Of a stretch of 40,596 bases of DNA, positions 5,096 to 37,214 are shown in pieces (position 1 is the stretch's first letter; every line of letters begins with the position of its first letter). The notes beneath the pieces were generated by a model. It was given only the letters and a program-made list of their open reading frames with translations. It was not told the origin of the DNA and searched no databases. Source of the stretch: Chloroflexota bacterium (GTDB taxonomy: Bacteria > Chloroflexota > Anaerolineae > UBA4142); the NCBI GenBank assembly GCA_023381515.1, contig JAMCQI010000055.1, positions 1 to 40,596 of the forward strand, given 5' to 3'. The translations under genes and the position numbers were made by a program.

Positions 5096-5131
5096 GCGCC
5101 GGCAGCCTCCATGTTGCCGGCGCTAGTTTTT
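5096..5131 (+). terminator. Intrinsic terminator of the hydrolase-like gene
   Basis: A 9-bp GC-rich stem (5096-5104 pairing with 5115-5123, 10-nt loop) is followed by TAGTTTTT. It lies 45 bases after the stop at 5050. Its right arm overlaps the stop codon of the convergent giant gene (5123-5125), so the hairpin also forms in that transcript, although without a U-tract there. Confidence 0.8.
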
Positions 5132-22992: not shown

Positions 22993-23506
22993 TATCCCAC
23001 TCCTCTCTCAACAGGCCCAAAATGACCTTGTCATGGAACCTGCCTTGGGTGAAAACGGCCTTCCGTAAGACTCCTTCCTCGACAAAGCCAAAGAACTTGG
23101 CGAGCTCAATAGTCTTGTTAAACGAATAGCAGGCCCCGTAAATTCGGTGCAGATTCAACTCCTCGAATCCGTACCTGAGCACCAACTCGAGAGCTTCTTC
23201 GATATACCCTCTGCCCCGTTCGTTCGAGTCCAGAAGACCGGGGCCTATTTCCGCTTCTTGGTTGCGCCGGTCGATTTTGTCCATGCCAATGATCCCCACG
23301 GGCTTGCCTTGCACCGTCTCAATCACATAGATAAACCGGTTCGGGTCGGCGATTAGCTTCTCAAACCACTCTTGCTGCCCGGCCGGGTTGATGATCGAGG
23401 TGGTGAAGAAAAAGCGTCTATTGTCGGGATCGTTGCGCCAGCATGCGATCTGTTCCAGGTCGCGCTCGCTGACCGGTCTCAGGGTGATCTTTTTGCCTCT
23501 CAGCAT
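22961..23506 (-). CDS. GNAT acetyltransferase (RimJ/RimL type), 181 aa
   Basis: This is a full-length GNAT fold: ITLRPVSERDLEQIACWRND at the start, VIETVQGKPVGIIG, the acetyl-CoA loop region around ERGRGYIEEALELVLRYGF, and a C-terminal NLHRIYGACYSFNKTIELAK then FFGFVEEGVLR, typical of RimJ/RimL-type N-acetyltransferases. It starts one base after the degenerate SDR gene and overlaps the GT2 gene. In sugar pathways such enzymes acetylate an amino sugar, which would fit the DegT aminotransferase at 38248-39414, but the acceptor is not known. Confidence 0.85.
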   Translation of the reverse strand: MLRGKKITLRPVSERDLEQIACWRNDPDNRRFFFTTSIINPAGQQEWFEKLIADPNRFIYVIETVQGKPVGIIGMDKIDRRNQEAEIGPGLLDSNERGRGYIEEALELVLRYGFEELNLHRIYGACYSFNKTIELAKFFGFVEEGVLRKAVFTQGRFHDKVILGLLREEWDSGELGNGHGQ

Positions 23507-23507
23507 A

Positions 23508-24200
23508 CTATGTACCTTTCGTTATGGCCTGCGCACCTGCCAAGGGGATGACCTCGCCGTTCACGAAGGAGGCCTCTGGGGACGCGAGGAAAAGGATGGT
23601 TTCGACTGCCCTGGTGAGCGTGATCGAGTCCATGGTCCCACCCTCAGGGATGAGCACAACGTTGGAGGCAATTTCGCGTCGTCCGTACTCTTTCGCGAGG
23701 CTGCGGCACAATGCACAGAGAGCATTTTGTAGGGTAAAGTGAATCGCATGTCCAGGGGCTGCTGGATTTTCGTCCTGAACGAGAAAGAGGATCCGACCGC
23801 CTTGCTTGGATGACAGGAATTCTTGGACCGCGCGCTGAGAGATAAGAAAGGCGGCACGCAGCTCGGCGATTACTGTCCCATTCCAACTTGCCAGTGGCAT
23901 GTCTGCCAGCGAGCAGGCCGTGTCCACTTCGCGGATGGAAAAAGTGCTCATCACAACGCGGAGGCCCGTTGTCCTGGCACTTGCGGTTTCAAAAAGCCGG
24001 TCAGCCTCTTCTTCGCGGGACAATTCGGCAGTAAGATAAGAGAGGCGAGCATTGCCATCCGGCTGCGTCTCGCCGGGCAAAAGACAGTTAATCACGCGGG
24101 CGCCTCTCCGGCTCGCCGTCTCGGCCAACATGCGGCCGAGCGGGCTTGCTGGTCCGGTCACGATGAAACCCTGGTCATCAAAATCAAGCGACATTTTCAT
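23508..24200 (-). CDS. Degenerate short-chain dehydrogenase-like protein, catalytic residues missing, 230 aa
   Basis: The Rossmann fold is recognisable (GFIVTGPASPLGRMLAETAS; ISQRAVQEFLSS; LCRSLAKEYG; SPEASFVNGEVIPLAGA). The glycine motif is altered to TGPASPLG and the NAG motif is absent (VVMSTFS). Aligned with the neighbouring FabG, the catalytic Tyr becomes His154 and the Lys becomes Gln158 (HFTLQNAL in place of YAVSKAGL). The length is near normal and the frame is intact, so this is not simple decay. It may be a structural partner, perhaps of FabG at 25532-26368, or a binding protein. It lies 12 bases after the ketosynthase gene. Confidence 0.75.
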   Translation of the reverse strand: MKMSLDFDDQGFIVTGPASPLGRMLAETASRRGARVINCLLPGETQPDGNARLSYLTAELSREEEADRLFETASARTTGLRVVMSTFSIREVDTACSLADMPLASWNGTVIAELRAAFLISQRAVQEFLSSKQGGRILFLVQDENPAAPGHAIHFTLQNALCALCRSLAKEYGRREIASNVVLIPEGGTMDSITLTRAVETILFLASPEASFVNGEVIPLAGAQAITKGT

Positions 24201-24212
24201 GAATCCCGATCC

Positions 24213-25511
24213 CTAATTAGAGCCCCGTTCCAGGACGAGGCAGCTGTTCAACCCGCCAAACCCAAACGAGTTCGACATCGCAATGCGAATCCGATGTTCG
24301 CGCGCTTGGTTCGGAACAAAATCCAGATCCAGCCCATCATCCGGGGCATCTAAATTGATGGTCGGATGCACAAAGTTGTTTTCCATCTCAAGAATCGTGG
24401 CGACGAGTTCCACCAGGGCGGCCGCATAAAGGAGGTGCCCCGTCATGGATTTGGTCGAATTCACCGGGATTTCGTACGCGTGATCCCCCAGTACCGCTTT
24501 GATTCCGGAAACCTCGACGAGGTCGCCTAATTGCGTGGACGTCGCATGTGCATTCACATAGTCGACCTGTTCGGGATTAATGCGAGCGTCCTCGAGAGCC
24601 GCGCGCATGGCCCGCATCTGCCCCTCCTGCGAAGGTCGAATCTGGCGCGTCGCGTCCGAAGAGGCTCCGCCGCCGAGCAATTTGGCGTGAATACGCTTTC
24701 CGCGACGCCGCGCACTGCCGAGGGTCTCGAGGACGACGGCGGCGGAGCCTTCACTGGGGACAAAACCCTCACGGCGGCGGTCGAAGGGCCGGCTCGCCTT
24801 TGTCGCCTCCTCGTTGAACGATTCCGAGGAGAGCGCGCCCAGGGTGGCCCAGCTGTGCAGCAGCATCGGATCGAGGGCGCCGCTTGTAGCGGTGACGACG
24901 ACGGCATCGGCGCGCCCCGAGCGAATCATGTCCATCCCCGTAATCAAGGCAATGTTTGCGCTACCACAGGCATTGCCGACGGTCCAACTCGGACCCTTGA
25001 GGGTCAGCAGGTCGCAAACCCGGGCCAAGACATCCGTATCGAGGACCATTACACCGTAGAGCGGCTCGATGAAATCGGGCTCTTCGTTAAACGTCGTCGC
25101 GTTTTGCAGGATATAAGGCGCGTTGAGATTCGTCCCGCCCAGAATATGGCCAAACCGGTCCGGCGGCAGAGCCGGGTCAGGCAATTCGGCATCCACAAAA
25201 GCCTGCAGCGCAGCGGCCACGGCGAGCTGCGCGGCGAGCGGGGTCGAGCGCAGGATGACGGTGGCCGCGTTCTTCAAGCGATCCGGATAATTTCGGCCTG
25301 CGTGCTTCAAATGAGCGGCGAAATCAAACTCGCTCATATCGCCGCCGATCTTGGAGCCGATCCGGTCCGAGCGGTGCTTCCAGTGCGTAATACCGGAGCG
25401 TCCTGCCGAAAGTGCATCATAGAATTCGGCGACGGTTTGGCCGTTCGGGCAGATTACCCCCATTCCGGTGACGACGACCGTCCTGTCTGTGCCCATCTCA
25501 TTGTGATCCAT
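24213..25511 (-). CDS. Beta-ketoacyl-ACP synthase (KAS II-like), active Cys present, 432 aa
   Basis: A thiolase-fold ketosynthase of normal KAS II length. It carries the active-site Cys182 in VGNACGSANIA and two catalytic His in VNAHATSTQLGD and STKSMTGHLL. The C-terminal SNSFGFGGLNSCLVLER is canonical. It should condense malonyl-ACP with an acyl chain. It is clearly paralogous to the Ser-variant ketosynthase at 27487-28785, with the same length and motifs along the whole chain, so the two could form a heterodimer like KS-alpha/KS-beta of type II PKS. The start is supported by GAGG five bases before ATG. It lies 20 bases after FabG. Confidence 0.9.
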   Translation of the reverse strand: MDHNEMGTDRTVVVTGMGVICPNGQTVAEFYDALSAGRSGITHWKHRSDRIGSKIGGDMSEFDFAAHLKHAGRNYPDRLKNAATVILRSTPLAAQLAVAAALQAFVDAELPDPALPPDRFGHILGGTNLNAPYILQNATTFNEEPDFIEPLYGVMVLDTDVLARVCDLLTLKGPSWTVGNACGSANIALITGMDMIRSGRADAVVVTATSGALDPMLLHSWATLGALSSESFNEEATKASRPFDRRREGFVPSEGSAAVVLETLGSARRRGKRIHAKLLGGGASSDATRQIRPSQEGQMRAMRAALEDARINPEQVDYVNAHATSTQLGDLVEVSGIKAVLGDHAYEIPVNSTKSMTGHLLYAAALVELVATILEMENNFVHPTINLDAPDDGLDLDFVPNQAREHRIRIAMSNSFGFGGLNSCLVLERGSN

Positions 25512-25531
25512 AATGTCCTCGGTCGTTCATG

Positions 25532-26368
25532 TTACTTGACCTGTGCTGCGTAAGCCGGAATATCCTTAGCTCCGCCCGAGACAAAAACCGCCGTCCCATT
25601 GATGAACGCGGAGCAGGACGAGGCGAGGAAGAGCGCCACAGAAGCGATTTCCTGCACGAGGCCCGCGCGTTTCTGCGGACCCCAGTCGATGAGCGCCTGA
25701 AGCTGCTTTTCAGGCATGTCCTTGTTTAGGTCGGTCCGCAGAAACCCCGCCACGACGATATGCGCTCGAATGCCCTTGTCGCCATATTCCTGGGCGATGG
25801 TCTTGGTGAGTCCCAATAGCCCCGCCTTACTCACCGCATAGCTCGCCATTCCCGTACCGCCGTCTTGGGCGACCGAGCCGATGGAGATGATTGAACCGCC
25901 AGAGCCTTGAGCGAGGAATTGTTTGACTGCTCGCCGCGACACGAGGAAGGCGCCTGTCAGATTTGTCCCCAGCAGCGCATCCCACTCTGAAATGGGAACC
26001 TGAAGGATCAAGTTGCCTTGCCCAGCTTCCGGCCCGGCGGTGAGCCTGCCGGCGTTATTAATCACGACATCCACTCTGCCAAAAGCTTGGAGTGTGCGGT
26101 CAAATAAGGCTTCGACGTCATCTTCGCTCGTAATATCAGCTCGCATGGCGATAACGGCCCCTGGTTCGGAAAACCGCTCAGCTTCGGCTGCCACTTGAGC
26201 CGCTGGTCGGATATCGCGCGCACAAAATGCCACGCGGGCACGTTTGGCTGCCGCGGCGAGAACGATGCTCCTACCGATCCCCCGCGAACCGCCAGTGACC
26301 ACCAGCACCTTGCCGGAGAGATCGCGCCCGACTCCGTGGGACTCGCTGTTGGACGGCTGTGTCGTCAT
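25532..26368 (-). CDS. fabG: 3-oxoacyl-ACP reductase-like SDR (FabG type), 278 aa
   Basis: A classical SDR: cofactor motif TGGSRGIG (about residues 25-32), NNAG (104-107), and a catalytic set of Ser165, Tyr177 and Lys181 in SYAVSKAG, then PxxI-type cofactor contacts and a C-terminal FINGTAVFVSGGA. It reduces beta-ketoacyl-ACP with NADPH. I chose ATG 26368 (GGGGAG just upstream), 19 bases after the malonyl transferase; a longer frame upstream is Arg/Pro-rich and overlaps that gene. It supplies the keto-reduction step of the discrete synthase. No dehydratase gene (FabZ/FabA-like) is seen in the window. Confidence 0.85.
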   Translation of the reverse strand: MTTQPSNSESHGVGRDLSGKVLVVTGGSRGIGRSIVLAAAAKRARVAFCARDIRPAAQVAAEAERFSEPGAVIAMRADITSEDDVEALFDRTLQAFGRVDVVINNAGRLTAGPEAGQGNLILQVPISEWDALLGTNLTGAFLVSRRAVKQFLAQGSGGSIISIGSVAQDGGTGMASYAVSKAGLLGLTKTIAQEYGDKGIRAHIVVAGFLRTDLNKDMPEKQLQALIDWGPQKRAGLVQEIASVALFLASSCSAFINGTAVFVSGGAKDIPAYAAQVK

Positions 26369-26387
26369 ATGCTCCCCATGTCCATCG

Positions 26388-27461
26388 TCAGGCTGCAGTG
26401 GCGACATGTCCATCCTCAAATGCTTTCCGGTCGGTCGTCGACGCGGTGCTCCGCGGCCGCGCCCGGCTGGAGGACGCCATTTCAAATGTCTCTGTGATGG
26501 CCGTGCGCGAGACGCGCTGGACGAAATTGAGCAGGCTCTTGCCCGGTCCGCACTGGATAAAGTGATCTACCCCTGTATTGACAAGGTAATCCAGGCTCTC
26601 TTCGAAGAGAACGGGATGGGTCAATTGCAGAACGAGAGACTCTCGGACGCTGTCCGCATCGGTCAATGGACGCGCCGTGACATTGTCAATCACCGGGAGC
26701 TTGGGATCCCTAATTCCCGCCGCGTCGACAAGCCGGGCAAACGTGGGGGCCATCGGCGCGAGCAGGTCGCAGTGAAAAGGAACGCTGACGGGCACCTCGA
26801 CCGCGCCGCCGCCTTCTTCCTCGCACCGGTCTGCGGCGGCGAGCACTGCCGGTCGCTCGCCCGAGATCACGGTCTGCCCTGGCGAGTTGTGCAGGGCGAC
26901 GCCGACGATGCCGATCGAGCGCACGGAGACGCACGCATCGTAGATCGTCTGCCGATCCAGGCCCATGATCGCCATCATCGCGCCCTTGCCATCCGGCACG
27001 GTACGTTGCATGAGCCGGCCCCGTGCGGCGACGAGCCGCACTGCTTTTTCAAACTCGATGGCGCCCGCGACGACAAGGGCGGCATACTGTCCCAGGCTGT
27101 GCCCGGCCAACGCATCCGGCACCAGCCCCTGGGCAATCAGGCGATAGGCCTCGGCCACGGTGAGCGATAAAATCATCGGCTGCTGGATTTCCGTGCGTCG
27201 CAATTCCTCGGGCGAACCATGCGCCATGACGACCGAGAGTGGATACCCGAGCGTGCGATCGGCCAGCTGAAAAGTCGCTTGGCATTCCGGGCAAACCATG
27301 GCCGTCCCCGCGGCGAGAGGAGGTAGCGCACCGCCCGCCAGCCCGTCCGCGGGCCGGGATTGGGCCAGCTTGCGCAAACAATCCTCACACGAAGCGGCGA
27401 GGGCTCCGCTCATCCCAGCCGCTTGACTACCCTGACCCGAAAAGAGAAAGGCTCGTTTCAT
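26388..27461 (-). CDS. fabD: ACP S-malonyltransferase-like acyltransferase with extra CxxC pairs, 357 aa
   Basis: It transfers malonyl from CoA to ACP. Visible motifs are FLFSGQGSQ at the N-terminus, nucleophile Ser122 in GHSLGQYAAL, Arg in AARGRLMQ, and the catalytic His in VPFHCDLL. Between the GQGSQ loop and the 'ADRTLGY' helix there is an insertion with two CxxC pairs (Cys25/Cys28 in CEDC; Cys57/Cys60 in CPEC), suggesting a small zinc-binding knuckle that ordinary FabD lacks. The tail of about 35 residues is Ser/Arg/Thr-rich. I start at the ATG giving MKRAFLFSGQ; an ATG seven codons earlier, four bases after the ketosynthase stop, is equally possible. Confidence 0.85.
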   Translation of the reverse strand: MKRAFLFSGQGSQAAGMSGALAASCEDCLRKLAQSRPADGLAGGALPPLAAGTAMVCPECQATFQLADRTLGYPLSVVMAHGSPEELRRTEIQQPMILSLTVAEAYRLIAQGLVPDALAGHSLGQYAALVVAGAIEFEKAVRLVAARGRLMQRTVPDGKGAMMAIMGLDRQTIYDACVSVRSIGIVGVALHNSPGQTVISGERPAVLAAADRCEEEGGGAVEVPVSVPFHCDLLAPMAPTFARLVDAAGIRDPKLPVIDNVTARPLTDADSVRESLVLQLTHPVLFEESLDYLVNTGVDHFIQCGPGKSLLNFVQRVSRTAITETFEMASSSRARPRSTASTTDRKAFEDGHVATAA

Positions 27462-27486
27462 ATCACCCGTTTCCTGCTGCATGCTT

Positions 27487-28785
27487 CTACGAAGCTCGTC
27501 CGATGACCACCGACGCGTTCAGCCCGCCGAAGCCGAACGAGTTCGACAAGGCATACTCGATACGATAGTCACGCGCCTCTTTCGGCACAAAATCCAGGTC
27601 CAATTCCGGATCCGGCTCTTCCAGGTTGATCGTCGGATGGACAAAGCCATGCTCCATCTGGAGGATGGTCGCGACAAACTCGACGATCCCGGCAGCCGAC
27701 AGGCAGTGCCCGGTCATCGACTTGGTCGCATTGACCGGCACGTCGTAGGCGTGTTCCCCGAAAACCGTCTTGATGGCGTTAACTTCAACCGCGTCGCCTA
27801 ACCGGGAAGAAGTGGCATGGGCATTCACGTAATTGATCTCCTCCGGATCGAGAGAAGCATCGGCGAGCGCGGCCTGCATCGCCCACGCCTGGCCGTCTGC
27901 ATTCGGGATGGACGACCGGGATACATCAGAAGTCGAAGCCGCCCCGAGCACCTCGGCGTAGATTCGGGCGCTCCGCGCCCGTGCACTCTCGTACGTTTCG
28001 AGCACGACGGCCGCTGCCCCTTCGCTTGGAACAAAGCCCTCGCGCCGTGAGTCGAAGGGCCGGCTGGCGCGCCATGGTTCGGCGTTGAAGGACCGCGTGG
28101 CAAGCGCGTCCAGCATGACCCAGCCTTGGAGGACTGTCGAGTCCGGAATACAAGCGCCTCCTGAGACGAGGGCAGCCTCCGCTCGTCCGGCCCGCAATTG
28201 GTCGATAGCGCTGAGCAACGCCAGATTTCCGCTCGCCGACGCCCCGCCGACTGTAAAGCTGGGTCCCCGCACTCCAAGAATCTCGGAGATGACCGAGAGC
28301 ACGTCGGTGTCGAGAAACAAGAGGCCGAAGAGTGGATCGACATACTCTGGCTCTTCTCTACAGGCAAGCACGCTCTCTTGAATATACTGCTGGTTCAGAT
28401 TGCTGCCCGCAAGCACGTGCGCCACACGCTCGCTTGCCACTCGAGATTGCGCAAGGCCTGCATCCGTGAAGGCTTGCATCGCCGCCGCCGCCGTCAGTCG
28501 TCCAGAGAGCGGAGCGGGCCCCAATAGTCTCTGGGCGCGCTCCACCAACTCTTGGGGATAGTTGCCTCCCACACGCGCCAGGTGCTCGCCGAGATGAAAG
28601 TCACTCATGTCGCCGCCGACCCTCAACGGGATGCGGGTATCGACACACTTCCATTGGGTAATGCCGGACAGTCCAGCCTGAAGGGAGGCGAGATATTCGG
28701 CAAGAGTCTCACCTGTGCGGGTGAGGACGCCCATGCCCGTCACCACCACACGATGTTCACAACGATCGGACCATTTCCAGTTCAT
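27487..28785 (-). CDS. Ketosynthase-like protein with active Cys replaced by Ser (decarboxylating KS of HCS cassette), 432 aa
   Basis: A full ketosynthase fold with both catalytic His (VNAHATSSRLGD; ATKSMTGHCL), but the nucleophile position reads VGGASASGNLA, so Ser183 stands where its paralogue at 24213 has Cys182. In HMG-synthase beta-branching cassettes (PksF-type proteins) a Cys-to-Ser KS decarboxylates malonyl-ACP to acetyl-ACP, and this gene has exactly that change beside the other cassette genes. The ATG start at 28785 overlaps the stop of the PPTase gene in an ATGA. A KS-beta (chain-length-factor) role with the Cys-containing paralogue is the main alternative. Confidence 0.85.
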   Translation of the reverse strand: MNWKWSDRCEHRVVVTGMGVLTRTGETLAEYLASLQAGLSGITQWKCVDTRIPLRVGGDMSDFHLGEHLARVGGNYPQELVERAQRLLGPAPLSGRLTAAAAMQAFTDAGLAQSRVASERVAHVLAGSNLNQQYIQESVLACREEPEYVDPLFGLLFLDTDVLSVISEILGVRGPSFTVGGASASGNLALLSAIDQLRAGRAEAALVSGGACIPDSTVLQGWVMLDALATRSFNAEPWRASRPFDSRREGFVPSEGAAAVVLETYESARARSARIYAEVLGAASTSDVSRSSIPNADGQAWAMQAALADASLDPEEINYVNAHATSSRLGDAVEVNAIKTVFGEHAYDVPVNATKSMTGHCLSAAGIVEFVATILQMEHGFVHPTINLEEPDPELDLDFVPKEARDYRIEYALSNSFGFGGLNASVVIGRAS

Positions 28786-29495
28786 AACGGCATCTCCACC
28801 GGCGCGATCTTTGCGATCGACATCACGTACTTTCCATCCGGTCCGCCGATCTGCCGGGTGCGTACCCACAGTTGGGGATCACGGATGCGGTCGGAAAGGG
28901 CGCCTTTCACCCGGACAAGCGTGCGTCCTTGCGCTAAATTCTGGACTCGGATTTCGATGGCCTCCGGACCGATGTCTTGACCTGCCAACAACGCTTTCCA
29001 AACAGCTTCCTTGGCGGTCCACGCGGCGAGCCCCGCGATCTCCGGTCCCTCCTGCGCCTCGGAGAGCAATCGGCGCTCGCGCGGCGAAAACGCATACGAG
29101 CTCTCCGCCACCTCGTTGGGCCTTGTGTGCTCTACATCAATCCCCGCAAGGAGCGGACCCTCTTCCTGGGCGAACCAGGCACAAGCAGCGGCCAGGCGAC
29201 TGGAATGGGAAATGGAAACGCGGACGCGGCCCCCCGGTCCGTCCATGATCACACGGGGGGCACACCCCGGTGGACTAGAGATTTCCAGCGCGGGTAAGGC
29301 CCCGCGGCCTCCCAGGATCGGTCGAATCGCCTTCCGCGCCGCGAGCCGCCCAATCACAAAGTGCCGGCGGCGGCGTTCAGTCGGCAAGGCACGCGCTTGT
29401 TCGCGCTCGGCGGCCGTTAGCACATGCGCCAGCGCCTCGAGTGGCTCACCCGGATCGGGAACGACGGCGACCCGGAGGGACCTAGGCGGCGCCAT
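28782..29495 (-). CDS. Sfp-type 4'-phosphopantetheinyl transferase, 237 aa
   Basis: It moves the phosphopantetheine arm of CoA to the serine of carrier proteins. Visible motifs are RRRHFVIGRLAARKAI in the N-terminal half, VSISHS, the magnesium-binding GIDVE, and WTAKEAVWKALLAG (W-x-x-KEA). The length is typical of the two-domain Sfp/EntD type used in secondary metabolism. The ATG overlaps the ACP 2 stop by 14 bases and the gene ends in an ATGA with the KS gene. Its place directly after an ACP gene indicates a dedicated activating enzyme for the two ACPs of this cluster. Confidence 0.9.
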   Translation of the reverse strand: MAPPRSLRVAVVPDPGEPLEALAHVLTAAEREQARALPTERRRRHFVIGRLAARKAIRPILGGRGALPALEISSPPGCAPRVIMDGPGGRVRVSISHSSRLAAACAWFAQEEGPLLAGIDVEHTRPNEVAESSYAFSPRERRLLSEAQEGPEIAGLAAWTAKEAVWKALLAGQDIGPEAIEIRVQNLAQGRTLVRVKGALSDRIRDPQLWVRTRQIGGPDGKYVMSIAKIAPVEMPL

Positions 29496-29760
29496 AGACC
29501 TTTGCCGTGATTGACATCTGGTTCGCCGCCGTTTCGAATGCGCTCACCAGTTGGCCAAGGTTTTGCGCGTTGGAAAGCTCACGGCGCGGGAGTTTGATTT
29601 GAAGCTGTTTCATCGAGCGCGACACCACCTCAACAATCTCGAGAGAATCGGCGCCAAAATCACGCATACTATCCGTTTCGCGGATATCCTTCCCCCGCGC
29701 GCCTTCTATGATCGCCAGGACGTTCGCCTGGACGATCGCGAAAATCTCTGCCCGACTCAT
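29482..29760 (-). CDS. Acyl carrier protein 2 (HCS donor-ACP type), 92 aa
   Basis: A single carrier domain with the phosphopantetheine Ser39 in DFGADSLEIVEV. The third helix region reads IKLPRRELSNAQNLGQLV; an 'IPR-x-EL...N-x-x-x-L' pattern is characteristic of the donor ACPs of HMG-synthase cassettes (AcpK-like) rather than housekeeping AcpP. It is highly similar along its length to ACP 1 at 30511-30768. AAGGAG lies eight bases before ATG. It is followed by an overlapping PPTase gene. Confidence 0.88.
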   Translation of the reverse strand: MSRAEIFAIVQANVLAIIEGARGKDIRETDSMRDFGADSLEIVEVVSRSMKQLQIKLPRRELSNAQNLGQLVSAFETAANQMSITAKVYGAA

Positions 29761-29812
29761 CTACCCTACTCCTTTGCAGATTGTGCAAGAGCCACGGGAT
29801 ATGGCTCGCCGT

Positions 29813-30355
29813 TCAGATCAAAGACCCCTGCATAGCAACATAGCCCAGTTCTTCCAACTTGGCCATTACCTTCGCCGCGCTCTGCTCCGGAGTCTCGTGG
29901 TCGCTTTCAATCACGACCTCGGGATTCAGTGGAGGTTCGTAGGGATCGTCAATTCCCGTAAAATTCTTGATCTCGCCCGCGAGCGCCTTTTTGTAGAGGC
30001 CTTTGACATCCCGGTTGGCGAGCACCTCGACGCGGCACTTGGCATACACCTCGACAAAGCGCTTGATCTTGACGCGGTTCTCGTCTCGAATGGCACGGTA
30101 AGGAGAAATGGCTGCCGCAATCGCGACCACATCGTTACGCGTCAAAAGGTCGCAGACGAATCCGATGCGGCGGATATTCGTATCCCGGTCTTCTTTACTA
30201 AATCCCAGCCCCTTGGACAGATTTTCCCTCACGACATCTCCATCCAACAGCTCCACTCTGTGACCGCGAGCGCGGAGATCTTGTGCGATCAAGTGTGAGA
30301 CTGTCGTCTTGCCTGCCCCGGATAGCCCGGTGAACCAGATAGTAAACCCTGCCAT
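29813..30355 (-). CDS. cysC: Adenylylsulfate (APS) kinase, 180 aa
   Basis: It phosphorylates APS to PAPS with ATP. The P-loop GLSGAGKTT is at about residues 9-17, followed by [26 protein letters not shown] (APS-binding region), ISPYRAIR, and [13 protein letters not shown], all diagnostic of CysC. The length is normal. I use the ATG giving [10 protein letters not shown]; ten extra in-frame codons lie upstream. It sits between the two ACP genes, and its substrate comes from the sulfurylase domain at 34539-37214. No PAPS reductase or sulfotransferase is found nearby. About 155 bases before the start hold no convincing gene. Confidence 0.92.
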
Positions 30356-30510
30356 CGACGCGTTCACTCCGACGTTTCCTCTCAATAATCAGTGTTTGGA
30401 AGACCGGAATCATGGTGGGTCCGCCGGCGGCTCCACGTCGATTTTCAAATGGAGCCGTCGGTCCAGACCCAAGCTCGTCGGGCCAAAGGCGAGCTGCTTC
30501 TCCCGTTCAT

Positions 30511-30768
30511 CTAGCTGACAAGCACCCGAGTGGCGGCCCGCTCAAAAATGGTCACCAGATCCCCTAGATTCTGTGCATCGAGCAACTCGGTGCGCGGCAC
30601 TTTGATCCGCAATTGCTTCATGGAGCGGGATACCACCTCGACAATTTCGAGCGAATCTGCCCCATAGTCGCGCATGCTGTTGGCTTCGGTGATATCCTTA
30701 TCTTTGGACCCCTCGATGACCACCTGCACGTTCGCCTTGATCACTTGGAAAATCTCTGCTCGGTTCAT
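30511..30768 (-). CDS. Acyl carrier protein 1 (HCS donor-ACP type), 85 aa
   Basis: A carrier domain with Ser39 in DYGADSLEIVEV and the helix-3 segment IKVPRTELLDAQNLGDLV, the same donor-type pattern as ACP 2. ATG at 30768 has a strong GGGAGG five to six bases upstream, which decides the start over an ATG five codons earlier. In beta-branching systems the donor ACP carries the acetyl group that the HCS adds to a beta-ketoacyl acceptor ACP; with two ACPs present, one could be donor and the other acceptor. Confidence 0.9.
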   Translation of the reverse strand: MNRAEIFQVIKANVQVVIEGSKDKDITEANSMRDYGADSLEIVEVVSRSMKQLRIKVPRTELLDAQNLGDLVTIFERAATRVLVS

Positions 30769-30779
30769 TTTATCCTCCC

Positions 30780-30890
30780 TCAAGTGTTGTGTTTGCTGCT
30801 AAAGCCGAAATGGTTACGCAAGAACCATTGTCCGAAACGGTTTGGAAAGAGCACCTCCTCCGTCATGCGCCCAGCAAGTTCCCAGGTCAT
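30780..30890 (-). CDS. Possible small ORF between enoyl reductase and ACP 1, 36 aa
   Basis: ATG at 30890 lies three bases after the stop of the enoyl-reductase gene, and the TGA at 30780-30782 lies 11 bases before the ACP 1 start, so the ORF fills the gap exactly. It reads MTWELAGRMTEEVLFPNRFG and then 16 more residues with three aromatic residues and several basic ones. A G-rich stretch upstream may serve as a weak ribosome-binding site, or translation may be coupled. I recognise no family. It could be a real small protein or chance. Confidence 0.4.
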   Translation of the reverse strand: MTWELAGRMTEEVLFPNRFGQWFLRNHFGFSSKHNT

Positions 30891-30893
30891 TGT

Positions 30894-31712
30894 CTAGCCC
30901 CCATCCTTTGGAAAGGCTTGCGGTAATCCGCGGCGAGTGACAAATTCCATCGGACCGATCAGGGACCATCCTTCGTCAATCGTTATGACCTGCCCTGTGA
31001 TAGCGTCCATCAATCCCGAGCACAATGCGACGGCTGCCCTGGCGACCTCCTGCGGCTCGAGGAACAGCCCTTCGACTTCTTTCTGCATAGAGTCAATAAC
31101 GGCATCGCCAAAGGTGGAGCGGGAACTCGCCGTGTCCAAGAAACCGGGACGAATGGCGTTCACACGAACTCCCGCGCCCTTGAGCCGGACTGCGAGGTAG
31201 CGACATAGAGTCTCGAGCACGGCCTTGGAGCTGCCAGCCAAATCGTAGCCCGAATGACAGACTTGCGCCCCGTCGCTCGACACCGCAAGCACATAACGGG
31301 GGTATTTGCCAATAACTTCCTGAGCGGCCTGAACATAATCAATCAGGGGCCAAGCCGAGTAACCCAGGGAGAGATCGAAGCTGTTCTTCTTGAGATCTTT
31401 AACTCCGGTAATCACCTTGGAAAAGGCGACATTGCTTATGAAGATGTCCAATGTCCCCACGGTCTCGCGGATCGTGTGCAGAACCTCGCGTGTTTGATCC
31501 GCGTCGGCCACATCCGCTTCCAGAATGTGCGGGGGTTCCAGTCCCTGTCTAGAATATTCATTTAACAGAGCCCGTTCATCCGCACTTTGCCAATGGTGTG
31601 TGAGGAACACGGTAGCGCCCGCCTGCGCAAATTCCAGACCGATGGCCCGGCCCAGGCCGCGAGTTCCGCCCGTGACGAGCACGCTCCTTCCACTCATTTC
31701 GATTTCGATCAT
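30894..31712 (-). CDS. Enoyl-ACP reductase-like SDR (FabL type), 272 aa
   Basis: A Rossmann SDR (VTGGTRGLGRAI) with the active-site spacing Tyr156-x6-Lys163 (GYDLAGSSKAV). Y-x6-K is the enoyl-reductase spacing of FabI/FabL, in contrast to Y-x3-K of keto-reductases. Other FabL-like features are FISNVAFSKV in place of NNAG and LCRYLAVRLKGAGVRVNAI. It should reduce the double bond of an enoyl-ACP; here the likely substrate is the beta-methyl enoyl chain left by ECH2. Its ATG overlaps the ECH2 stop in ATGA. Confidence 0.78.
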   Translation of the reverse strand: MIEIEMSGRSVLVTGGTRGLGRAIGLEFAQAGATVFLTHHWQSADERALLNEYSRQGLEPPHILEADVADADQTREVLHTIRETVGTLDIFISNVAFSKVITGVKDLKKNSFDLSLGYSAWPLIDYVQAAQEVIGKYPRYVLAVSSDGAQVCHSGYDLAGSSKAVLETLCRYLAVRLKGAGVRVNAIRPGFLDTASSRSTFGDAVIDSMQKEVEGLFLEPQEVARAAVALCSGLMDAITGQVITIDEGWSLIGPMEFVTRRGLPQAFPKDGG

Positions 31713-32509
31713 GATCCGCTTCCCTCAGACGCTGAAAGCGTGACGTATCGTTCTGCAATGACGCGCCGGATTTCCGTAGACGAGAACAGCGTCCTCTGCA
31801 TTGCAATTTCATGGGGCAGGACCTGTTGAAAGTCCTCTCGGCGTCTTGTCGAGAGCACACCTTTCAAGAGCAAGAGCGATGCGCGTGGCACAGATTCGAG
31901 GTCTGTGGCAATTTCGAGGGCACGTGTGCGGACTTGATCCTTTGGGACGATGGCGTGTGCAAGGGGACCGCCATTCGCTTTCAACTCATGTCCTTTCACG
32001 AGTCTCCCTGTCAAGATCAGCTCCCGCGCGAGTGGAACTCCCACTGTTTCCTCGAGGGCGACGATGGCCCCCGGGCCGGGCGTGAAACCGAGCGCCATGA
32101 AATTCATCCCGTAAAGGCTCTGTTCGGCGAGGACGGGGATATCACACCACAAGCCGAGGATAAATCCGCCGCCAATCCCATGACCTGCCATTGCGGCCAC
32201 CGTCGGAACCGGTATGGACAGCAGGAGCGGAGGCAACTCGAGAATGTGTTCGGCGGGAAAGCTTTTCCCGGGATGGCCCGTATCCTCCTGTGTTTGAATC
32301 AAATAGCCGCGACTGGCACCGGCCGAAAAGTATCGACTGCCACCCTCCACGACCACCGCATGAAGCGTCGCGTCGCGCTTGATGGTTTCCACCCAGTCCG
32401 CGAGTTGAGGGACAAAGCCGGTTCCCATGTAGGGCTCCTCATCCGTGGAAATCCTGAGTGACGCGACATGTTCGCTAATACGAGTGATACCTAAAGCCAA
32501 TGTGTTCAT
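31709..32509 (-). CDS. ECH2: crotonase-fold decarboxylase of beta-branching cassette (PksI-like), 266 aa
   Basis: An enoyl-CoA hydratase/isomerase-fold protein. It has a substrate/oxyanion segment FSAGASRGYL, a GHGIGGGFILGLWCD helix, and YGMNFMALGFTPGPGA. The NFM-x-x-GFTPG motif, without the catalytic Glu of true hydratases, is characteristic of ECH2 decarboxylases (PksI-type), which remove CO2 from the 3-methylglutaconyl-type intermediate to leave a beta-methyl enoyl-ACP. ATG 32509 follows ECH1 by ten bases; an upstream in-frame extension overlaps ECH1 and is Arg-rich. Confidence 0.88.
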   Translation of the reverse strand: MNTLALGITRISEHVASLRISTDEEPYMGTGFVPQLADWVETIKRDATLHAVVVEGGSRYFSAGASRGYLIQTQEDTGHPGKSFPAEHILELPPLLLSIPVPTVAAMAGHGIGGGFILGLWCDIPVLAEQSLYGMNFMALGFTPGPGAIVALEETVGVPLARELILTGRLVKGHELKANGGPLAHAIVPKDQVRTRALEIATDLESVPRASLLLLKGVLSTRRREDFQQVLPHEIAMQRTLFSSTEIRRVIAERYVTLSASEGSGS

Positions 32510-32519
32510 ATTGTTGCAT

Positions 32520-33293
32520 CTAGGTCCACGGAGTTTCGCCTTCCAGGAAACGCGCAATCCTCTCGCGGGTGGATTCGCTCTCTGCAAGAGCGGAAAAGCG
32601 TGCGATCGCCTCTCTTTGGTAAGCGGCAAAAGAACCGTAGTGATCTGCCACCAGGGCCTTGAGCGCTGCTGTTGCCCGCGCATCCGCTCGGATCAAGCGC
32701 CGGGCATGTTGCCGCAAGGCACTTTCGAGATCCTCGGTCACTTGATCGACCAGGCCGAATTTGAGTGCGTCGACGGCGTTCAGAGGGCTAGCCCCCAAAG
32801 CCAACATGCGCGCTTGGGCCACACCCATGCGCCGAGCCACATAGGGGAAAACCGTCGCCGGGATCAACCCCATGATGGTCTCGGGAAGGGAGAAACTTGC
32901 CCGCGGCGAGGCCAGGACGATGTCCGCCGCGGCCGCCAGTCCGACTCCTGCACCCATCGCTGCCCCGTCGACCAATGCGATCACCGGGCGTGGTGTTCTT
33001 TCAATCATCTCGAGGAGGTGAGCAAAGTGGTCCAGGATGTCGTGTGCGATGCCGGGTGAAATTGCCACCGTAAGGTCAAATCCAGAGCAAAACGAGCCGG
33101 GCCCACCTTCCACGGTCACGAGCGGCGATTCCCTGTCCAATTCCAGCGACTGGGTCAAGCGCACGATCAGGTCTGGTGTGATTCGATCTTCGTCGGCGTC
33201 GTTCCGCAGGACCAGGCAAAGCGCAGGTACCTCGCTCTCTTTTCTCACGGATGGGACCGAAACGCCGATCGAAGAAGCGGTATTCAGCTCCAT
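32520..33293 (-). CDS. ECH1: crotonase-fold dehydratase of beta-branching cassette (PksH-like), 257 aa
   Basis: A crotonase-fold enzyme: oxyanion loop GGPGSFCSGFDL, then DGAAMGAGVGLAAAADIVLA and FSLPETIMGLIPA, with Glu138 in the usual catalytic position. In the cassette it dehydrates the HMG-like acyl-ACP made by HCS. It starts with AGGAG six bases before ATG and overlaps the HCS stop by ten bases. The pair ECH1-ECH2 directly after HCS is the standard order in polyketide beta-branching clusters. Confidence 0.85.
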   Translation of the reverse strand: MELNTASSIGVSVPSVRKESEVPALCLVLRNDADEDRITPDLIVRLTQSLELDRESPLVTVEGGPGSFCSGFDLTVAISPGIAHDILDHFAHLLEMIERTPRPVIALVDGAAMGAGVGLAAAADIVLASPRASFSLPETIMGLIPATVFPYVARRMGVAQARMLALGASPLNAVDALKFGLVDQVTEDLESALRQHARRLIRADARATAALKALVADHYGSFAAYQREAIARFSALAESESTRERIARFLEGETPWT

Positions 33294-34513
33294 CGATAAC
33301 TCCTGTAAAAATCCTTCACCTTGTCAAGAACAAGGCGCTTTCTACCGCAATAGACATCAGCATAGTGTCCGGGAGGTGTGGAGAAATCGGGCTCGAAATC
33401 CCGGGCAGTGAGGCTCTGCTCCGTCCGGATCTCTGCGGCGCAATACTCTTCGAAACTGACCTTGCGCCGCGCCGACAAATGGTCGCTAATCTTTCGGACA
33501 GCCAGAACCTCGCGTGCCGTCTCCTGCACATAGCCGCTATAGAGCTCAGCGCATGCACCTGAGCCGTAGGAAAAGCAACCGATTCGGATTCCAGGCTGCA
33601 GATCGGGTAGGGATTCCATTAATCCGACGAGACCCGCGTACAAATTGGCGGAGTAGGTATTGCCCAACTGGCGCGTGTAGACCAGTGAAGGTTGTACCAT
33701 CCTCTCGAAACTCGAGCGGAATTCGTCCCGGCCTACAACGCCTCCATCGGACTCCAGCAGGACTTGGTGAGCCTGCTGAATCAATGGAACCACCGGCGTA
33801 TGGTAGATCATGTGGCCAATGTGTTCATGAAAACTGCTCGGTTGGGCAACCTGGCGATACTTGTCCCACGCTAGCTCTACCAAGTCAAGGTAGGACGCCA
33901 ATGACAAGGCAGCATCGATGTGCTCGGTCGTGGCCGTGGGGCGGGCTGTGTCGTAGACTTCGCGTGTCGCATAGCCGCTGAAAGTCTCCAGCTCAAACAG
34001 CCTGGGCTCGGCGGAGACCGAGAGGGCCACGGCATTGGGGCCGATCGAGAGTTCTGCGAGTTCCCCAAAGTGACGCCGGGGAAGATCTGTCATTATGACC
34101 AAGGCCTTTTTTCCGGGTGCCACACCGGACCGGACCCATGCCGCTGCCATTTGGAGAGCGGCGGTGCCTGCGTAGCAGGCTTGTTTGATTTCGAAATTGC
34201 GGCAATGAGCTCCCAATTTCAGGTACTTGTGTATGTAGGTGCTCAAGCTCTTACCGTGATCCATCCCTGTTTCGGTTGCGACAACCAAGAGCTCAAAAGC
34301 GCCAGGCTCACTCTCCGCGATAATGGGCTCGGCCGCATTGGCTCCCATCGTCACAGGGTCCTCGTAGCTGGGAAGGACGGATCGTCGCAGGAAGCCTGTC
34401 ACGTCCAGGTCCTTGAGATGGAAATTCGCACGAGCGGCGACAATGTCAGCGTAATCGATGGTCAGCGTGCTGGCGTACAAATTGAGATCGTCAATGCCGA
34501 CTGCGGTATACAT
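33284..34513 (-). CDS. HMG-CoA-synthase-like enzyme (HCS, PksG-like), 409 aa
   Basis: It condenses an acetyl-donor ACP with a beta-ketoacyl-ACP. The catalytic triad is visible: Glu81 (VATETGMDHGKSLSTYIH), Cys113 (EIKQACYAGTAALQ) and His238 (HMIYHTPVVP). The N-terminal LPSYEDPVTMGANAA and the GNTYSANLYAGL segment also fit. These match polyketide HCS proteins (PksG, MupH, CurD type) better than eukaryotic mevalonate enzymes by eye. I chose ATG 34513 (GAAAGAAGA upstream), 25 bases after the sulfurylase-AlkP gene; a longer frame overlaps that gene. It defines this cluster as a beta-branching system. Confidence 0.92.
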   Translation of the reverse strand: MYTAVGIDDLNLYASTLTIDYADIVAARANFHLKDLDVTGFLRRSVLPSYEDPVTMGANAAEPIIAESEPGAFELLVVATETGMDHGKSLSTYIHKYLKLGAHCRNFEIKQACYAGTAALQMAAAWVRSGVAPGKKALVIMTDLPRRHFGELAELSIGPNAVALSVSAEPRLFELETFSGYATREVYDTARPTATTEHIDAALSLASYLDLVELAWDKYRQVAQPSSFHEHIGHMIYHTPVVPLIQQAHQVLLESDGGVVGRDEFRSSFERMVQPSLVYTRQLGNTYSANLYAGLVGLMESLPDLQPGIRIGCFSYGSGACAELYSGYVQETAREVLAVRKISDHLSARRKVSFEEYCAAEIRTEQSLTARDFEPDFSTPPGHYADVYCGRKRLVLDKVKDFYRSYRWS

Positions 34514-34538: not shown

Positions 34539-37214
34539 CTAAGCAGAGACCGGAGATTCGACGGCGACGGGTTCTTCAACCTCGATCACTCGTCCCAGTA
34601 TATCCTGCGGAATGGGTTGCCCGAACTCATTGAGCACGGTGGGTGCAATATCGACGAGCTTGGCTCCTGTCACTGTGCGTCCGCCCAGGTCTCGCTTCGG
34701 GTCGTAGTAGACAAAGATCCCGTGCTGCGCGTGATTGGCATCGTCCGGTCCGGTGTCGTTCTCAAAGGTGTGCAAGGTGTTCAGCCCAATCGAGCCGACG
34801 GCCCGCCAGAACAGGTCGCCGAAGATGACGATCAGGTCAGGAGGCACGTTCTTGGCATCCTGGTAGATGCGCTGAGGTTTGTAGACCCGGGTCGGAATCG
34901 GGCGCCCCTTGTCGTCGGGGATCTTGCACAGCTTTTCGACCAGCTCATCCCGCACATCTTCGTAATGGCTCGGTTCGATCGTCCCATTCGGTTCGCGCCC
35001 TTTGACGTTCAAAAAGACACGGCCATAGTATCCCCCGCTGCCCCAGGCGCGGGTCTTGGCCCAATCCACTTGGACCTTTTCCAACGGCACCACCCCTTGC
35101 GGCTTTTCCTTCAAGACGAGATAGCCCTCATTTATCAGCCACTCGTTGAGCGTGATGCCGCCATCCATTCGTTTCGCCCCGTGATCGCTCATCACGATGA
35201 CGCTCGTATCGTCGTCAATCAGTTCCAGGACGCCGCCTATTTGCTTGTCGAGCCAGACATAGTAGTCGTGAATCGAATTGACCAGGGAATTGCCGGGCTC
35301 GTGCTTGGCGTGGTTCACATCGTGATATTTCCAAAAGCCGTGGTGCAGCCGGTCCACCCCGATTTCGACCGCCATTAAGAAATCCCAGGGCTTTTCTTTC
35401 ATGAAATGCCGGATCACCTTGAAACGCTCTTCGGTCATTTCGTAAATCTTGCCGAGCAGCCACTGCTTGTCATCCGTTCGAAAGTTGGGCACGTCGACCA
35501 TATAGTTCGGCGCGATCTTGGCGATTTCTTCCCGGATGTTGTCGGGAAATGTGTATTTGGACTGGGTGCTCGGAGAAAGGAAGCAACCTACGCGGATCCC
35601 ATTGACCGGCTTGGGTGGATATGAAGGGGGTACTCCGACCAGGATAGACTGCTTGCCCGCTCTCCCCAGGTAATCCCAGACCTGCGGTTCCTCGACCGAG
35701 CGGCCATTGGCAATCGACATGTTCTCATACGAGTGATCCGACCGATTGCGGAAACCATAGATTCCGAGTTGGCCGGGATCTTTCGACGACATTGAGCAGG
35801 CCCACGCGGGAACGGTGATCGGGGGGATCACGCTTTCCAGCTTGCCCCATACGCCCTCGTTGCGAAGGCGCCTGATATTCGGCATCTCGCTGCCGAATTG
35901 GTCGAAGATGAGCGAAGGTTCGCAAGAGTCCAGCCCGAGGACGAGGACGCGCTTTTTGGAAGGATGAGAGACGAGGGCGGGAGCATGAAGCGGGCTTGGT
36001 TTTTCTTCATCCTTCATCCCTCCGCCTTCATCCTTTGCTGTCATTCCCTCGATCAACACCCGGGCCACCTCCGGCCGCGTGAACTCGGGCGGGAGCATCT
36101 CTCCCTGGCGCAGCATCGCGCGGACCTGAGTGCCGGAGAGAATCAGGTGGTCCTCCTCGCCATGCGGGCAGGTCTTGGCCGACACGATCTGGCCGCACTT
36201 CTTGCAGTAAAAGGTGTGCTCGAAGAGGAGAGGGGTGATCCCAATCTCCTCGGGTTTGAATTCGTCAAAGATCTTTTGGGCATCGTAGGTTCCATAATAC
36301 TGCCCCACCCCCGCATGGTCCCGGCCGATGATGATGTGCGTGCAGCCGTAATTCTTGCGGCAGAGGGCATGGAAGATGGCTTCCCGGGGACCGGCATAGC
36401 GCATGGCGGCGGGAAAGACGCCGAGGAGGACCCTGTCGGGAGGGTAATAGTCCCGGAGGAGTTCCTGGTAGCTTTGCATGCGGACGGAAGCCGGAATATC
36501 GTCGGGTTTGGTTTCGCCGACGAGGGGGTGGAGGAAGAGGCCGTCACAGATTTCGAGGGCGGTCTTTTGGATGTATTCGTGGGCGCGGTGGACGGGATTG
36601 CGGGTCTGAAAGGCGACAATGCGTTTCCAGCCGCGGGCGGCGAAGAGCTTGCGGGTTTCGAGGGGAGAGTGCCGGAATTCGGGGAATTCGGGGTGCTCGG
36701 GCAGGGCGAGCACGCGCACCTCTCCCCCCAGATAGACCTCCCCTTGTTGGTAGAGGCGGCTCACGCCTGGGTGCTTGACCTCCGTCGTCCGGTACACAAG
36801 TTGTGCCTCCCGCGTCTTGTCGTAATCGAACCTGTCCTCGACCGTCATCACTGCTAGCACATGGCTGTTTGCTTCGGTCAAAGCAATCTCTTCGCCGAGC
36901 CGGAGTCCGCCGGCCAATTCGCGCGAGACCGGCAGTGTGATCGGAATGGTCCAGGGTAGGCCGTTTGCAAGGCGCATCGACTCAACCACCGAATCATAGT
37001 CGCGCCGGGTCATAAAGCCGGTCAGGGGAGAAAACGCGCCTGCGCCGAGCAATTCCACGTCCGAGACGTTCATGGAGTGGAGGTCAATCTTCTTCAGCCG
37101 AGCAGCTCGTTCAATGGCGGCATCACGTTCGGCGCCGTGCAGCATTTGATCCATCAAGACACCGCCATGGGGTGCGATTTCGCCGATGACCCTTTCACTG
37201 TGCATTTCAGACAC
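34539..37214 (-). CDS. ATP sulfurylase fused to AlkP-superfamily phosphodiesterase, 891 aa
   Basis: Residues 1-390 are a complete sulfate adenylyltransferase: [11 protein letters not shown] (203-213), [17 protein letters not shown], and a zinc ribbon CKKCG...CPH (337-351). It makes APS and pyrophosphate from sulfate and ATP. A polar linker (391-421) joins an AlkP domain (422 to about 870) with metal/nucleophile motifs [26 protein letters not shown] and [12 protein letters not shown] Thr nucleophile points to a phosphodiesterase or phosphatase, not a sulfatase. One possible role is removal of pyrophosphate to pull APS synthesis, but the substrate is unproven. The GTG start has GAGG about nine bases upstream. 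It lies between a TauE permease and the HCS gene. Confidence 0.88.
35960..36036. repeat. Imperfect inverted, GGATGAAG-rich repeat encoding the interdomain linker
   Basis: Two arms (about 35960-35990 and 36005-36036), both built of GGATGA/ATGAAG and G-rich units, face each other across a T-rich loop. They encode the Lys/Asp/Glu-rich linker between the sulfurylase and AlkP domains. The low-complexity, palindrome-like form resembles small interspersed repeats more than selected protein sequence. Confidence 0.45.

What the first reader, a model, noticed from the sequence alone, without database searches (positions are those of the whole stretch)
24213..34513. HMG-synthase beta-branching cassette built around a discrete (type II) synthase, with no modular PKS
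Seen: HCS with Glu81/Cys113/His238, ECH1, ECH2 with NFM-x-x-GFTPG, two donor-type ACPs and a Cys-to-Ser KS, all co-directional. Known: HCS cassettes (PksF/G/H/I, MupG/H/J/K, CurB-F) normally act in trans on acceptor ACPs of type I modular PKS lines. Here the neighbours are stand-alone KS, AT, KR, ER and PPTase. Inference: a dissociated fatty-acid-like pathway in which beta-keto groups are replaced by methyl branches, perhaps iteratively, giving isoprenoid-like branched chains from acetate units.
Basis: partly seen in the sequence, partly recalled or inferred. Interest (0 to 1): 0.95.

Follow-up and report, generated by a model that had tools for sequence, protein, structure and literature searches.

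The report
Stand-alone beta-branching acyl synthase operon
A bacterial operon encodes separate small enzymes, with no giant modular synthase in the 40-kb window, that would likely build an acyl chain and add a side branch to it by HMG-synthase chemistry; similar stand-alone gene sets occur in several other bacterial phyla, including genomes in which no modular synthase was found, so a class of branched lipids may have gone unnoticed.

Summary
Window 24213-34513 (minus strand) is a tight operon of discrete HCS, ECH1, ECH2, ER, two ACPs, PPTase, Ser-KS (KS1), AT, KR and a second, Cys-KS (KS2). No PKS/NRPS was found in the window; the 3167-aa ORF is a TPR protein. The HCS groups with polyketide beta-branching HCSs, not with MvaS. 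New: (1) 32 related loci of discrete type were fetched; 24 hold all seven core genes, many add a dehydratase and an alpha-oxoamine synthase, and 6 of 28 such genomes show no type I PKS hit. (2) The cassette KS is Cys in 31 of 31 discrete loci and Ser in 15 of 15 loci classed as modular/trans-AT; the window has one of each. (3) The window's ECH2 has Gln where 41 of 41 readable relatives have the decarboxylase His, so a methyl branch is doubtful; a retained carboxymethyl (3-methylglutaryl-like) branch is at least as likely. (4) KR here, and DH plus a second ER in many relatives, argue against branching at every round. The isoprenoid-like product is unproven. No genome was held for the window, so a PKS elsewhere in it is not excluded.

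The parts
33284..34513 (-). HCS (3-hydroxy-3-methylglutaryl-ACP synthase, beta-branching type), 409 aa, Glu/Cys/His intact
32520..33293 (-). ECH1, predicted dehydratase; Asp and Glu of the dehydratase site present
   Evidence: matched to PksH D68/E137 (PMC7501309, passages) by motif, not by an alignment with PksH
31709..32509 (-). ECH2 (PksI/CurF-type fold) with Gln at the catalytic His230/His240 position (codon 31796-31798, CAG)
30894..31712 (-). FabL-like SDR, predicted enoyl reductase (Tyr-x6-Lys, motif recalled)
30511..30768 (-). ACP1, donor-type discrete ACP
29813..30385 (-). APS kinase, between the two ACP genes
29482..29760 (-). ACP2, donor-type discrete ACP (55 of 85 aligned residues identical to ACP1)
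28782..29495 (-). 4'-phosphopantetheinyl transferase
27487..28785 (-). KS1, active-site Cys replaced by Ser (codon 28237-28239, TCG); predicted malonyl-ACP decarboxylase
26388..27482 (-). discrete acyltransferase, FabD-like (254.1 bits, cut-off 260.9), predicted malonyl-loading
25532..26368 (-). KR, FabG-like (YxxxK, motif recalled)
24213..25511 (-). KS2, intact Cys-His-His; predicted condensing enzyme
23508..24200 (-). SDR3, degenerate short-chain dehydrogenase (no YxxxK), 12 bp after KS2
22961..23506 (-). GNAT acyltransferase, 1 bp after SDR3; same apparent operon
34539..37214 (-). ATP sulfurylase - type I phosphodiesterase fusion, 25 bp before HCS

Best explanation
The operon encodes stand-alone KS, AT, KR, ER, ACP and HMG-synthase-cassette proteins, and together they would likely work as a dissociated (type II) synthase that builds a beta-ketoacyl chain on small ACPs and turns its beta-keto group into a carbon branch without a modular PKS. 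Predicted steps: AT loads malonyl on ACP1/ACP2; KS1 (Ser) decarboxylates malonyl-ACP to acetyl-ACP, the donor; KS2 (Cys) condenses acyl and malonyl units to a beta-ketoacyl-ACP; HCS adds the acetyl unit to the beta-keto group; ECH1 dehydrates the HMG-type product; the ER reduces the double bond. Relatives with a His-bearing ECH2 should decarboxylate to a beta-methyl branch. The window's ECH2 has Gln there, so its branch is more likely kept as carboxymethyl (from acetoacetyl-ACP: 3-methylglutaconyl, then 3-methylglutaryl). KR serves ordinary rounds or hydroxyl products. Shown: gene set, order, catalytic residues, kinship, no PKS found in the window, recurrence of the set in other phyla. Inferred: every reaction, substrate length, number of branches and the product.
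For: Discrete domain calls and tight operon. HCS: CurD 246 and PksG 242 bits, against 166 or less for MvaS and mevalonate HCSs (an 'HMG-CoA synthase-like protein', 8s81, scores 209.5); in the tree the window sits in a 19-row clade (99*) whose seven locus rows are all discrete-type, separated from MvaS by a 100* branch. KS: discrete-type KSs form a 61-row clade (95*) apart from the 13 Ser-KSs of loci classed as modular/trans-AT (97*); Cys in 31 of 31 discrete loci, Ser in 15 of 15 others. 24 of 32 discrete loci carry KS, KR, HCS, ECH1, ECH2, ER and ACP together. 6 of 28 discrete-type genomes have no type I PKS linker hit; the same search rings in 4 of 14 control genomes. ECH2: Gln against His in 41 of 41 readable other rows; PksI H230A is severely impaired (PMC7501309, passages); Art21 ECH with Gln cannot decarboxylate (PMC11425284, passages).
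Against: No genome is held for the window, so a PKS elsewhere cannot be excluded. 22 of 28 discrete-type genomes do have type I PKS hits, and Kibdelosporangium, 'R. rhodnii' and Byssovorax loci have a type I synthase next door. 8 of 32 discrete loci lack at least one core gene; L139 lacks both ECH1 and ECH2, L006 and L057 lack the ER. No acceptor-type ACP is visible: both ACPs look like donors. No dehydratase in the window. The Gln could be a one-base error (CAG against CAC/CAT), and no second sequence of this gene was available. In Art21, Gln changed to His gave no decarboxylase activity, so Gln alone does not explain the loss there. No biochemistry exists.
Confidence: 0.55

Rival explanations
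1. Branching happens once, on acetoacetyl-ACP, giving 3-methylcrotonyl- then isovaleryl-ACP as an iso starter that the same KS/KR/DH/ER extends; an ACP-bound analogue of the myxobacterial MvaS route.
For: Many relatives keep KR, DH and two ERs beside one HCS cassette, as expected if only one round is branched; an alpha-oxoamine synthase hit lies nearby in 18 of 32 loci, which would fit an iso-branched sphingoid-like base.
Against: Window ECH2 lacks the decarboxylase His; no dehydratase in the window.
Confidence: 0.25
2. One reading: HCS branching at every round, giving isoprenoid-like beta-methyl chains from acetate.
For: All parts for repeated KS2-HCS-ECH1-ECH2-ER rounds are in one operon, and no dehydratase was found in the window.
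Against: KR present; a DH hit in 28 of 32 related loci; ECH2 Gln.
Confidence: 0.1
3. The cassette is an accessory of a type I PKS elsewhere in the genome.
For: 22 of 28 discrete-type genomes have type I PKS hits; type I KS-AT frames of 1297-2625 aa lie next to the set in L001, L005, L030 and L147, and a 754-aa KS-AT frame in L152.
Against: None found within 24 kb downstream or 6 kb upstream of the cassette here; 6 of 28 genomes, including the strain Rubrivivax rivuli KYPY4, have no hit (several of the six may be incomplete assemblies); the set carries its own Cys-KS, AT, KR and ER.
Confidence: 0.15
4. A short-acyl supply line for a surface glycan: 3-methylglutaryl or 3-hydroxybutyryl groups are passed by the GNAT to an aminosugar, with PAPS-dependent sulfation.
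For: DegT aminotransferase, GNAT, GT2, MFS, ATP sulfurylase and APS kinase lie on the same strand, most of them in the same tight run; a cluster-encoded HMG-CoA synthase (Cpz5) supplies 3-methylglutaryl-CoA for caprazamycin (PMC9636800, abstract and passages); a Gln-ECH2 fits a retained carboxyl.
Against: APS kinase and ATP sulfurylase were found in 0 of 32 related loci (DegT, GNAT and GT2 were not tabulated); no sulfotransferase seen among the 33 proteins scanned; acyl substrate of the GNAT unknown.
Confidence: 0.2

Closest known systems
trans-acting HCS cassettes of modular PKSs (PksF-I, BonF-I, VirC-E, CurB-F)
   Same: HCS, ECH1, ECH2 fold, Ser-KS and donor-type ACP are all present; HCS nearest CurD/PksG, ECH2 nearest PksI/CurF
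   Different: No modular acceptor found; own Cys-KS, AT, KR and SDR-type ER; ECH2 catalytic His replaced; in the discrete relatives the single cassette KS is Cys, not Ser
Type II fatty acid synthase
   Same: Discrete KS, AT, KR, ER, ACP; KS2 is FabF-like, ER FabL-like
   Different: An HCS/ECH1/ECH2 branch step replaces or supplements KR/DH/ER; the KSs form their own clade
M. xanthus MvaS/Liu/Aib isovaleryl-CoA route (Aib part recalled)
   Same: HMG-type intermediate built from acetate units and then dehydrated (PMC9636800, passages)
   Different: HCS of another clade; ACP-borne set; no AibA/B-type decarboxylase seen among the proteins scanned
Caprazamycin Cpz5 pathway
   Same: HCS in a cluster used to make a 3-methylglutaryl group (PMC9636800, passages)
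   Different: CoA-based as described there; its genes were not compared with the window in any call

Membership tests
beta-branching HCS cassette | HCS of the polyketide type with Glu/Cys/His | tested here: met
beta-branching HCS cassette | ECH1 dehydratase residues | tested here: met
   the window has both; over all 41 ECH1 rows, window included, Glu in 41 and Asp in 37
beta-branching HCS cassette | ECH2 decarboxylase with catalytic His | tested here: not met
   Gln in the window; of 42 other rows 41 have His and one is truncated
beta-branching HCS cassette | Cys-to-Ser decarboxylating KS | tested here: met
   KS1 is Ser; its activity is not testable here
beta-branching HCS cassette | acts on acceptor ACPs of a modular PKS | tested here: inconclusive
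   no modular PKS found in the window, but the rest of the genome is not held
mevalonate-pathway HMG-CoA synthase | groups with MvaS-type HCS or passes TIGR01835 | tested here: not met
   244 bits against cut-off 360.35; tree (the outgroup is six myxobacterial MvaS-type rows, no Gram-positive mevalonate HCS was included)
type II fatty acid synthase | discrete condensing KS (Cys-His-His), KR, ER, AT, ACP | tested here: met
type II fatty acid synthase | dedicated dehydratase | tested here: not met
   none found in the window; hits in 28 of 32 related loci

The most novel reading that the evidence does not exclude
A widespread, so far unnamed family of type II beta-branching acyl synthases, spread over about six phyla and often coupled to an alpha-oxoamine synthase, makes beta-branched lipids (sphingoid-like amino ketones in many lineages). 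The window's probably Chloroflexota version is a derived form that re-evolved a Ser-decarboxylase KS from a Cys-KS and lost the ECH2 decarboxylase His, so that it makes carboxymethyl-branched (3-methylglutaryl-like) acyl chains.
Probability: 0.35. Interest if true: 0.88.

Novelty: new variant of a known kind. Interest (0 to 1): 0.74.

Why it matters
HCS beta-branching is known from modular assembly lines. A self-contained dissociated version, with a gene set that recurs across phyla and is present in genomes without any type I PKS hit, would add a carbon-branching step to the fatty acid synthase repertoire, predict an unknown class of branched (often amino) lipids, give small soluble proteins for studying donor/acceptor ACP choice, and suggest a split in evolution: Cys-KS in discrete sets, Ser-KS in modular ones.

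Tried and rejected
Modular PKS in the window: not found; the 3167-aa ORF is TPR repeats plus DUF6077. Mevalonate HCS: rejected. Single origin of all Ser-KSs: the quick tree favours two changes, but the AU test does not reject one clade (p 0.259 with 86 rows; p 0.112 with 55 rows after dropping long branches and the Thr row and thinning; the groups were named after the tree was seen), so the independent Cys-to-Ser change is only favoured. Lys80 of PksI as a criterion: dropped, since PksI K80A is active and the loop aligns poorly. Viral contigs: no HCS relative. Plasmids: 47 records matched, all under 60% identity; the two opened (Methylosinus, Azospirillum) have the HCS beside a gene 10.9 kb or 12.9 kb long, which I take for PKS genes, not discrete sets. 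Promoter/terminator scan: no excess over shuffles. Chloroflexota neighbourhoods could not be fetched: none of the 74 loci of the single genome scan is titled Chloroflexota and the genome search needs a genome handle. Literature: listings (titles and starts of abstracts) showed no paper on a discrete type II HCS synthase in the held open-access library; most subscription papers are not covered. Seven papers were seen in passages only; the passages of haliangicin (PMC4768178) and Micromonospora FAMEs (PMC3252875) gave no precedent.
Full report
CHECK OF THE OBSERVATION. Six-frame ORFs and Pfam/NCBIfam scans give, on the minus strand and in transcription order: DegT aminotransferase, TauE/SafE permease, ATP sulfurylase-phosphodiesterase fusion, HCS, ECH1, ECH2, FabL-like ER, ACP1, APS kinase, ACP2, PPTase, KS1, AT, KR, KS2, a degenerate SDR, GNAT, GT2 and MFS. 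The 15 gaps from HCS to MFS run from -32 to 125 bp and 12 are 20 bp or less, so this reads as one operon. The only giant ORF (3167 aa, 5123-14626) is a TPR protein, not a synthase. No modular PKS/NRPS was found among the 33 proteins scanned.

TWO KSs. KS1 is Ser, KS2 is Cys; both keep both His and the Lys. Of the 120 KS1 relatives listed (7990 passed; the best 120 are shown), 116 have Cys, 3 have Ser (the window's own, P0122 at 90% and P0123 at about 75% identity) and 1 has Thr (P0124). In the tree (86 rows, 31 of them from those 120) these four form a clade (100*) inside a 39-row, otherwise Cys clade (99*), away from the 13 Ser-KSs of modular/trans-AT loci (97*). Two changes between Cys and not-Cys are counted, but the AU test does not reject one origin (p 0.259; p 0.112 on a thinned set of 55 rows without the long branches and the Thr row). 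An independent Cys-to-Ser change is therefore favoured, not proven. Judged by equal contig lengths in the list, four relative contigs appear to hold two KSs each, all eight Cys; that linkage is inferred from length only.

HCS KINSHIP. Nearest solved structures are CurD (246 bits) and PksG (242); an 'HMG-CoA synthase-like protein' (8s81) has 209.5, and MvaS/mevalonate enzymes 166 or less. TIGR01835 scores 244 bits, below its cut-off of 360.35. In a 61-row tree rooted on six myxobacterial MvaS-type rows, the window lies in a 19-row clade (99*) whose seven locus rows (L001, L003, L004, L006, L030, L132, L152) are all of discrete type; the other 11 rows are database proteins without context. Gram-positive mevalonate HCSs were not in the tree.

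NOT A ONE-OFF. One scan of genome contigs with an HCS alignment (the window plus 24 of the 120 listed homologs; 694 found) gave 74 loci, modular and MvaS-type ones included. Further HCS searches matched (threshold in brackets; each count includes the centre genome itself, and at most four candidates per genome were scored): 5 of 5 genomes of a small phylum, 4 of these at 1e-117 or better (1e-70); 5 of 396 in the phylum of an Acidobacteriota locus (1e-70), of which G175, G180 and G346 are discrete, G075 a partial set and G005 modular; 15 of 377 in the phylum of the Byssovorax genome (1e-100), 14 classed as discrete (one cut by a contig end before any KS); 2 of 200 in the order of Rubrivivax (1e-90), one discrete; 3 of 116 in the phylum of the Parachlamydiaceae genome (1e-90), two discrete; 1 of 96, the centre alone, in the family of the alphaproteobacterial MAG (1e-90). 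So the set is sporadic in most groups. Of 32 discrete-type loci tabulated by BLAST hits (L147 stands for L004), HCS is in 32, KR 31, KS 31, ECH2 31, ECH1 30, ACP 29, ER 29, DH 28, AT 27, alpha-oxoamine synthase 18; 24 hold all seven of KS, KR, HCS, ECH1, ECH2, ER and ACP. The eight that do not: L109 and L132 are cut by contig ends, L137 shows no ACP, L003 no ECH1, L006 and L057 no ER, L114 no KR or ER, L139 no ECH1 or ECH2. In the myxobacterial and acidobacterial loci the usual order is AT-DH-KS-KR-HCS-ECH1-ECH2-ER, then ACP and a second ER, with the alpha-oxoamine synthase at either end; loci of the window's own clade are ordered differently. Named carriers: Kibdelosporangium (3 species), Actinomadura (2), Rubrivivax rivuli, a record titled Rhodococcus rhodnii, and MAGs of Parachlamydiaceae, Byssovorax, Myxococcales and Alphaproteobacteria. 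The alphaproteobacterial set ends in an acyl reductase and an aldehyde dehydrogenase instead. Assignment of loci to 'discrete' or 'modular/trans-AT' was mine, from open-frame size, domain hits and record titles.

KS RULE. The cassette KS is Cys in 31 of 31 discrete loci that hold one, and Ser in 15 of 15 modular/trans-AT loci (12 + 3; nine near-identical Synoicihabitans loci counted once). For four of the 15 (L012, L031, L032, L033) the fetched stretch shows no multi-domain KS protein, so their class is less sure. Cassettes whose KS is fused to an AT (L007, L008, L010, L022) and loci without a stand-alone KS were not counted. The window is the only locus seen with one of each.

DOES IT NEED A MODULAR PKS? 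A type I KS linker (PF16197) was sought in 28 genomes with discrete-type sets: no hit in 6 (G007 = Rubrivivax rivuli, G009, G180, G346, G639, G772) and hits in 22 (21 over the cut-off); completeness of these genomes was not told. The KS hits listed for G007 (5 of 6) and G009 (3 of 4) lie in frames of 474 aa or less. Against this, in the window's own clade type I synthases lie next door: KS-AT-alpha-oxoamine synthase and AT-triple-DH proteins in Kibdelosporangium (Pfam on L001), KS-AT-KS in Byssovorax. All seven genomes of that clade in the search have at least one hit. For the window itself the question stays open.

THE ECH2 SURPRISE. PksI depends on His230, described as conserved in all reported methyl-branch decarboxylases; H230A is severely impaired (PMC7501309, passages). 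In the gap-free stretch E..MH...F the window reads EIAMQRTLF. Of 42 other ECH2 rows 41 have His and one is truncated. The predicted fold is confidently ECH2 (pLDDT 89.3; best PDB matches CurF ECH2 and PksI). In the survey of PMC11425284 (passages) all 48 single-domain ECH2s have His and all 23 ECH-TE didomain proteins have Gln; the one tested, Art21, cannot decarboxylate, and its Gln-to-His form could not either. Retained carboxymethyl branches are known from bongkrekic acid, where they arise despite an active ECH2 (PMC12560621, passages). So the window's cassette may stop at the carboxylated branch; after the ER this would be 3-methylglutaryl-ACP from acetoacetyl-ACP. A one-base error (CAG, 31796-31798) is not excluded.

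ACPs. Both window ACPs and the six window-type relatives printed (L001, L003, L004, L006, L030, L152) read G(A/T)DSLE..EV.SR(S/T)MK.L, without the Trp flag described for acceptor ACPs (flag as described in PMC10006238, passages, which also reports acceptors lacking it). ACPs of the other loci did not pass that print filter and were not examined. 29 of 32 discrete loci show one ACP and 3 show none, so one ACP kind may serve as both donor and acceptor; this is inference.

HOST. The window's host is likely Chloroflexota: the four organism-named relatives of the ATP sulfurylase fusion among 120 listed are Chloroflexota/Anaerolineae/Anaerolineales, and two of the three organism-named KS relatives are Caldilineaceae, the third Myxococcota. 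The two organism-named HCS relatives are a cyanobacterial and a Vicinamibacteria MAG, so the HCS itself does not tell.

VERDICT. A real, recurring arrangement that I did not find described in the papers searched: HCS beta-branching in a dissociated synthase. It is a new variant of known parts. Branch type, number of branches and product remain predictions.

Noticed in passing
window 29813-30385, 34539-37214, 37248-38036: APS kinase between the two ACPs, an ATP sulfurylase-phosphodiesterase fusion and a TauE permease lie on the operon strand; APS kinase and ATP sulfurylase hits were found in 0 of 32 related loci, and no sulfotransferase was seen among the proteins scanned.
   Followed up: partly
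window 34539-37214: The ATP sulfurylase-phosphodiesterase fusion is common: the 120 listed homologs carry both domains at about 60-83% identity (the search's length filter favours long proteins). Its function is unexplained.
   Followed up: partly
window 23508-24200: SDR without YxxxK right after KS2; SDR3-like hits occur in 5 of 32 related loci. A structural partner of the KR?
   Followed up: no
window 5123-14626: 3167-aa protein with DUF6077 and long TPR arrays.
   Followed up: no
L001, L005, L026, L030, L108, L109, L111-L113, L135, L138-L145: Cassette next to alpha-oxoamine synthase hits (18 of 32 loci), pointing to branched amino-ketone lipids.
   Followed up: partly
L030 / G008: The record titled Rhodococcus rhodnii NRRL B-16535 belongs to a 12.4-Mb genome and its HCS and KS are nearly those of Kibdelosporangium; the label may be wrong.
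   Followed up: no
P0124: A close KS1 relative has Thr in place of Cys/Ser.
   Followed up: no
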